This document shows positions 42,482 to 43,395 of a stretch of 64,000 bases of DNA, piece by piece. The DNA comes from Staphylococcus debuckii (GTDB lineage: Bacteria > Bacillota > Bacilli > Staphylococcales > Staphylococcaceae): the NCBI RefSeq assembly GCF_003718735.1, contig NZ_CP033460.1, positions 682,001 through 746,000 on the forward strand, in the 5' to 3' direction. The position numbers and the translations under genes were made by a program. Within the stretch, counting starts at the first letter, position 1. Each line of letters begins with the position of its first letter. The notes beneath the pieces were generated by a model. The model was not told the DNA's origin, ran no database searches, and was given only the letters and a program-made list of their open reading frames with translations.

Positions 42482-43395
42482 ATGAGTATAAAAATCTATA
42501 AATTACACTTTACTACACCTGTTCATTTTGGAGAAAAACGTTTAAGTGATAGCCAGCCTGTAATAGCCGCCGATACTTTATTTAGTGCGCTTTTTATTGA
42601 AACATTAAATTTAGGATTAGATACAGATTTTTTATTAAATGATTTAAAAATAAGTGATACTTTCCCATTTTTTAAAGATAATTATTATTTTCCCAAACCT
42701 TTAATGAAGATTGAATCACAACATAAGGATGAAACAAATTATAAGGTTTTTAAAAAACTTAAATTTTTACCTGTAAACCAATTTAATTCGTATATAGCTG
42801 GCGAAATTGATAGTACAGAAGCAGAACGAATCACTAGTGATTTTCAACTGGGAGAAAAAGAATTATTAACAAAAGTGTCATTGCAGAATAATGAAAAAGA
42901 AGGCGGAGATGCAGAACCATATTCTGTGGGGCTCTTTAGATATCATCCAGATGCAGGTCTTTATTTTATTGCAAAAGGTTCTGAGAACGCTTTGAATTCG
43001 TTAAATGAAGTTATTGATGCTTTACAATATTCAGGAATCGGTGGAAAGAGAAGTGCTGGTTATGGACAGTTCGAATGCAGAATAACTTCTGACGAGAAAG
43101 TGATAGATTTGTTGACTCAGCAAAAAGGTGAAATTATATATTACTGTCAACAGCTATGGCGGAAGAAAACAACTTAAAAACAATCTTAGAAAATGCTAGA
43201 TACTTGTTAAAGAAAAAATCAGGTTTTATTCAGTCTGCTGATTTTACAAATACTTTAGTGAAAAAGAAAGATTTTTATAGTTTTTCTGCGGGTTCAGTAT
43301 TTAAACATCCATTTTCAGGAGCTATATTTGATGTGGGTGAAAATGGAAAACATCCAGTATATAGATATGCTAAAGCAATGTGGATAGAGGTGTGA
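42482..43395 (+). pseudogene. csm4: csm4 with an internal frameshift at a TA repeat
   Basis: The ATG at 42482 follows ggtgagg. The first part reads through 'VHFGEKRLSDSQPVIAADTLFSALFIE' to a stop at 43175-43177, after losing homology at about 43137. The rest of Csm4, from 'LLSTAMAEENNLKTI' to 'GKHPVYRYAKAMWIEV', is in another frame ending at 43395. Removing one TA from the TATATA at 43135-43140 joins both parts into a 303-residue protein that aligns end to end with S. epidermidis Csm4 (304). Csm4 caps the complex and holds the crRNA 5' handle, so its loss should block assembly. The second part has an ATG at 43156 but no ribosome site. Confidence 0.88.

What the first reader, a model, noticed from the sequence alone, without database searches (positions are those of the whole stretch)
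43135..43142. csm4 is split by a TA-dinucleotide expansion
The csm4 frame breaks exactly at a TATATA tract. Removing one TA restores a 303-residue protein colinear with S. epidermidis Csm4, including the 'ILLSTAMA' junction. A short dinucleotide tract is a natural slippage site, so this may be a reversible on/off switch for type III immunity or a recent loss. No ribosome site serves the second half and no classical slippery heptamer is visible.
Basis: partly seen in the sequence, partly recalled or inferred. Interest (0 to 1): 0.75.

Follow-up and report, generated by a model that had tools for sequence, protein, structure and literature searches.

The report
Broken CRISPR gene, probably ordinary decay
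One gene of a bacterial anti-phage immune system is broken in two by a small reading-frame error, most likely an ordinary loss of function or possibly a sequencing error, and nothing found here marks it as a special on/off switch.

Summary
The frame break is real in the given sequence. [quoted passage not shown] The seven other csm4 genes among 84 genomes of the genus are unbroken, and the other eight cas genes here look whole. The break divides the crRNA-handle pocket known from S. epidermidis Csm4 (PMC10289348), and Csm4 is reported as required for interference (PMC10434264), so the effector is probably dead. The TATATA tract is ordinary: 30 in the window, 35.6 expected; six relatives read there lack it. 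No slippery heptamer, stimulating structure or ribosome site was found. Broken frames are not rare nearby: at least three of 118 shared with a sister species. Cas-gene frameshifts, one in csm4, are known CRISPR-escape mutations in S. epidermidis (PMC3784566). Best reading: recent loss of function. Assembly error is the main rival. A reversible switch is not excluded but has no support.

The parts
42482..43177 (+). csm4, first piece (alternative start GTG 42473, 234 aa); keeps the glycine-rich loop; its last residues before the stop are out of frame
   Evidence: (TIGR01903, 191 bits, profile 2-211)
43156..43395 (+). csm4, second piece, 79 aa, one frame behind; its first ATG matches a Met invariant in six relatives
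   Evidence: (TIGR01903, 81 bits, profile 230-304)
43135..43140 (+). TATATA tract at the break
   Evidence: count in window at chance level
43129..43131 (+). TGA in the frame of the second piece; upstream limit for any productive frame change
37223..47181 (.). insert of about 10 kb carrying both CRISPR arrays and the cas genes; absent at this site in two sister genomes
37419..37667 (+). CRISPR array 1, four 36-nt repeats, the last two altered
37844..38752 (+). cas1
38752..39054 (+). cas2
39095..41398 (+). cas10/csm1 open frame, whole, with HD domain and palm domain (GGDD seen in translation)
41404..41826 (+). csm2
41828..42472 (+). csm3
43400..44509 (+). csm5
44513..45799 (+). csm6 open frame
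45826..46527 (+). cas6
46653..47118 (+). CRISPR array 2, seven 36-nt repeats of six distinct sequences, the fifth and sixth most altered

Best explanation
csm4 has lost its reading frame by one small indel, most likely at or just before the TATATA tract. The ribosome reads the first piece, runs into the wrong frame and stops at 43177. The C-terminal 79 residues are not made, or only weakly from the inherited internal ATG. Without whole Csm4 the crRNA 5' handle cannot be held at the base of the complex next to Cas10, so interference fails although the other cas genes are intact. Shown here: the frame break, whole neighbours, whole relatives, conserved residues in both pieces, ordinary tract. 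Inferred: loss of function, recency, and natural rather than technical origin.
For: Frame break and two Csm4 pieces. Intact Csm4 in seven of seven other genomes of the genus that have it, of 84 searched, own included; in 157 genomes of the order the same eight carry it and only the window's is split. Eight of eight other cas genes reach their NCBIfam cut-off. Residues invariant in six relatives are kept at 75 of 96 covered positions in the first piece (its first 209 residues only; the tail was left out) and 38 of 45 in the second, so the second piece has not visibly decayed. S. epidermidis Csm4 holds the crRNA handle with F40, Y148, R191 and others on one side of the break and F249, Q251, H291 on the other (passages of PMC10289348); by position in the alignment the second piece keeps F, Q and H. 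Csm4 sits at the base of the complex beside Cas10 (passages of PMC5965380) and is named as required for interference (one passage of PMC10434264, citing a study not read). One-base deletions in csm4, csm2, cas10, csm6 and cas6 were found among CRISPR escapers of S. epidermidis (passages of PMC3784566), and all but two of the S. lugdunensis CC1 strains studied have a potential csm6 frameshift (passages of PMC6834553). At least three of 118 shared open frames in 264 kb around the window also carry frame-changing indels against a sister species, so a broken gene here needs no special cause.
Against: No reads, second strain or expression data could be seen. Nothing found explains why immunity would have been shed: no convincing protospacer, though these searches were partial. 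The same data fit an assembly error. Good conservation of the second piece would also fit a still-used protein.
Confidence: 0.68

Rival explanations
1. Assembly or sequencing error: the living strain has an unbroken csm4.
For: Only one genome of this species was seen. Of the three other frames nearby with frame-changing indels, two differ from the sister by a single base at a run of T, a common kind of read error ('common' recalled). In the reverse comparison no frame of this genome is split between two frames in the sister (0 of 118), an asymmetry that residual indel errors would also give.
Against: The third of those frames has a 13-base deletion (and one more single-base indel), not a typical read error (recalled). 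Most shared frames are whole (107 of 118). The genome is one contig, 99.99% complete. If the change is a two-base gain at a dinucleotide run, that is not the commonest error type (recalled).
Confidence: 0.2
2. Csm4 is still made in working form: by ribosomal or transcriptional frame change in the overlap, or as two chains, the second started at ATG 43156 after termination at 43177.
For: The two frames overlap by 22 bases with a start inside, a layout that permits termination-reinitiation (known in general; recalled). Both pieces keep most of their conserved residues.
Against: No in-frame X XXY YYZ heptamer in 43118-43177, and no ribosome site seen by eye in the 20 bases before 43156. Downstream RNA folds no better than shuffles, z 0.36. 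The ATG is an inherited internal Met, not a new start. The second piece, started there, lacks the conserved residues just before that Met. None of the seven other genomes of the genus has a split gene.
Confidence: 0.08
3. Phase-variable switch: the number of TA units changes often and turns type III-A immunity on and off.
For: A dinucleotide run sits at the break. The gene is one whose loss alone should silence interference.
Against: Three units only; count at chance level. Short runs of this kind also occur in cas1, cas10, csm5, csm6, cas6 and elsewhere in csm4. Six of six relatives read at this point lack it. A one-base loss nearby is also a possible origin. The one literature search made for slipped-strand phase variation with cas genes listed three papers, none of which by title or start of abstract reports such a switch in CRISPR-Cas (listing only).
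Confidence: 0.04

Closest known systems
cas/csm frameshift mutants of S. epidermidis RP62a selected by plasmid uptake (PMC3784566, passages)
   Same: Frame loss in a type III-A gene, csm4 among them, with the rest of the operon intact
   Different: There selected in the laboratory and associated with lost immunity; here found in a genome, cause and effect not shown; there one-base A deletions
csm6 frameshift of S. lugdunensis clonal complex 1 (PMC6834553, passages)
   Same: Natural frame loss in one gene of a staphylococcal III-A operon
   Different: Another gene, seen in several strains; here one genome only
Intact staphylococcal type III-A locus (S. arlettae, locus L002)
   Same: Same gene order; the window's first csm4 piece is 53-56% identical to S. 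arlettae Csm4
   Different: csm4 whole there

Membership tests
Type III-A CRISPR-Cas (staphylococcal) | Cas10/Csm1 with HD and palm domains | tested here: met
   TIGR02578 717 bits; Pfam HD and Cas10 palm
Type III-A CRISPR-Cas (staphylococcal) | Csm2, Csm3, Csm5, Csm6, Cas6, Cas1, Cas2 present | tested here: met
   each over its NCBIfam cut-off
Type III-A CRISPR-Cas (staphylococcal) | Whole Csm4 | tested here: not met
   two pieces in two frames
Type III-A CRISPR-Cas (staphylococcal) | CRISPR arrays next to the cas genes | tested here: met
   four and seven repeats of 36 nt on either side
Type III-A CRISPR-Cas (staphylococcal) | Works in interference | not testable with these tools
   needs an assay
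Phase-variable contingency locus | Repeat tract longer or more frequent than chance | tested here: not met
   three units; 30 found, 35.6 expected
Phase-variable contingency locus | Tract kept in relatives | tested here: not met
   absent in six of six relatives read at DNA level; the seventh was read as protein only
Phase-variable contingency locus | Tract length varies between cells or strains | not testable with these tools
   one genome of the species seen; no reads
Programmed -1 ribosomal frameshift | Slippery heptamer in the right frame | tested here: not met
   no exact X XXY YYZ in 43118-43177
Programmed -1 ribosomal frameshift | Downstream stimulating structure | tested here: not met
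   43132-43252: z 0.36; 130 of 200 shuffles fold at least as well (pseudoknots not tested)
Pseudogene by recent frameshift | Single frame break with intact relatives | tested here: met
Pseudogene by recent frameshift | Break confirmed in the living strain | not testable with these tools
   no reads

The most novel reading that the evidence does not exclude
The short TA run is a real switch: a minority of cells carry an open csm4 and the population keeps type III-A immunity in reserve, off in most cells.
Probability: 0.04. Interest if true: 0.75.

Novelty: new member of a known kind. Interest (0 to 1): 0.2.

Why it matters
It shows that gene lists can count this locus as a type III-A system although its effector is probably dead, so spacer or survey work on the species should check csm4 first. 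If the break is confirmed in other strains it would be a natural example of shed CRISPR immunity at an otherwise complete locus that is absent at this site in two sister species.

Tried and rejected
Structure: AlphaFold2 on S. arlettae Csm4 with the two window pieces as rows gave mean pLDDT 43.9, too poor to place the break; I used the published S. epidermidis contacts instead. The second structure job and the fold searches were not used.

Targets: array 2 against phages (best E about 6), plasmids (none at E up to 1) and 84 genomes of the genus; array 1 against the 84 genomes only. In some searches the tool scored only part of its first-look candidates (in the own genome 7 of 14 and 9 of 19). 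Apart from hits that overlap repeats, only short matches appeared, E 2.9e-4 to 7.4e-3; the best is 22 of 22 bases in G053. I do not read these as targets, but did not examine them. Inner 24-mers of four of nine spacers gave no exact match in viral contigs. Self-targets: in its own genome each array matched only the two arrays, within the scored candidates.

Other strains: csm4 DNA had no match in plasmids; a pattern scan of viral contigs found no relative; the one genome-contig scan gave S. arlettae only and may leave out near records. Species name not established: G000 is unnamed; the six papers listed for the genome length do not hold it; two candidate-prophage regions compared with phage records did not name a host. 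From memory the sister genomes suggest the S. carnosus group; unproven. A search for one candidate species with CRISPR listed no papers.

Recoding: the A run at 43122-43126 was considered as a slip site and rejected, because TGA 43129-43131 would then stop the second frame.

Full report
What is there. csm4 is read in two frames. The first piece ends at 43177. The second, whose first start is ATG 43156, is one frame behind and ends at 43395. Both match TIGR01903 above its cut-off, over positions 2-211 and 230-304 of 304, and seven solved Csm4 chain sequences match both.

Chance and the tract. TATATA occurs 30 times in the window against 35.6 expected. The window has 115 runs of at least three dinucleotide units and six of at least four. 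The first csm4 piece holds two TATATA, the one at the break and one at 42791, and the second piece one, at 43358. Short dinucleotide runs lie in cas1, cas10, csm5, csm6 and cas6, none in cas2, csm2 and csm3. The tract is thus not a special feature. In six distinct relatives the DNA at this place was read and has no TATATA (L002 and L004 are the same contig, counted once). Whether the change was a gain of two bases or a loss of one cannot be told. Seven of seven relatives have 22 residues between the GYG/GLG loop and the LLS/LLT motif (six, G068 counted by eye), which fits a two-base gain. The KG pair of the window lies one place off under that reading, which fits it worse; the glycine is invariant in six relatives.

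Relatives. Of 84 genomes of the genus, eight including this one have csm4; the other seven are open over 304-310 aa. In 157 genomes of the order the same eight were found, and only this one gives two matches. In a class-wide sample of 398 genomes nine pass the family cut-off, and this is the only one in two pieces.

Function. In S. epidermidis Csm4 the crRNA handle is held by residues on both sides of the break: H17, L23, F40, Y148, R190 and R191 on the N side, F249, Q251 and H291 on the C side (PMC10289348, passages). By position in the alignment the window's second piece keeps F, Q and H at the last three. The first piece alone would lack them. Csm4 is named among the proteins required for interference (PMC10434264, one passage, citing a study not read). 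The probable result is a dead effector with intact adaptation and processing genes. This is inference; nothing was assayed.

Could it still work? No exact slippery heptamer in frame was found from 43118 to 43177, and by eye no ribosome site lies in the 20 bases before ATG 43156. The downstream RNA folds like its shuffles, z 0.36. The ATG is an inherited Met, invariant in six relatives, not a new start. A two-chain Csm4 by reinitiation remains possible, because the frames overlap by 22 bases.

Decay or error? Residues invariant in six relatives are kept at 75 of 96 covered positions in the first piece (first 209 residues used) and 38 of 45 in the second: no sign of long decay after the break. 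In 264 kb of this chromosome, 118 of 219 mechanical open frames of the sister G049 (120 aa or more) had a match of at least 75% identity away from the edges; 107 were whole and 11 flagged. I looked at the DNA of six of the 11: three have frame-changing indels (two of a single base at runs of T; one with 13 bases and a further single base), three have no indel in the aligned part; five were not examined. In the reverse direction 112 of 118 were whole, and none of the six flagged was split between frames. A first, smaller check inside the window alone found 39 of 45 G049 frames and 41 of 43 G014 frames whole. So broken frames are a background feature of this sequence, by decay or by residual error. 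I keep assembly error at 0.2.

Context. Two sister genomes lack the locus here: their DNA runs on from window 37222 to 47182 with 10 bases between (G049, 94% identical in the pan genes) and from 37204 to 47190 with 50 bases between (G014, 85%). The locus is an insert of about 10 kb with the arrays and cas genes; I recognised no other gene in it, though only the cas frames were scanned against families. Neither sister has a csm4 match. The repeats vary, most in later copies of both arrays, which fits little recent renewal; this is inference.

Known parallels. In S. epidermidis, plasmid-accepting escapers carried frameshifts in cas10, csm2, csm4, csm6 and cas6 (PMC3784566, passages). In S. lugdunensis all CC1 strains studied but two have a potential csm6 frameshift (PMC6834553, passages). 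The window case is a further example of the same kind. Searches that could have shown a split staphylococcal csm4 in print (listings, with passages read from PMC6834553, PMC3784566, PMC8571024, PMC5559504, PMC10434264 and PMC6447361) showed none for this locus; the library lacks most subscription papers.

Verdict. Observation confirmed. Loss of function is the best reading (0.68), assembly error next (0.2), recoding or two chains 0.08, reversible switch 0.04. Interest is low.

Noticed in passing
window 37223-47181: The type III-A locus with both arrays is an insert with clean edges, absent at the same site in two sister species; no PF00589 recombinase match lies inside it (other recombinases not searched). 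In three other genomes with one or two contigs (G004, G021, G068) csm4 lies 67-136 kb from the contig start.
   Followed up: partly
G000:C1 about 626.7, 646.4 and 648.4 kb (outside the window): Three frames open in the sister G049 carry frame-changing indels here (single bases at T runs in two; 13 bases and one more in the third), a background of broken genes or residual assembly errors.
   Followed up: partly
window 37419-37667 and 46653-47118: The CRISPR repeats vary within both arrays (six distinct sequences in seven copies of array 2) and the two arrays differ in their common repeat.
   Followed up: no
window 37844-38752: This cas1 scores best against the NCBIfam model for type II Cas1 (TIGR03639, 270 bits), above the general Cas1 model.
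   Followed up: no
G011:C122 48878-48987: Matches to the array 1 repeat in a genome without a csm4 match, perhaps an array without this effector.
   Followed up: no
window 47244-48116: A trypsin-like protease gene directly right of the insert; the region is also present in both sister genomes.
   Followed up: no
G000:C1 1983412-1985618: Two neighbouring integrase-family genes (384 and 691 aa frames) that recall a Tn554-like element (name recalled, not tested).
   Followed up: no
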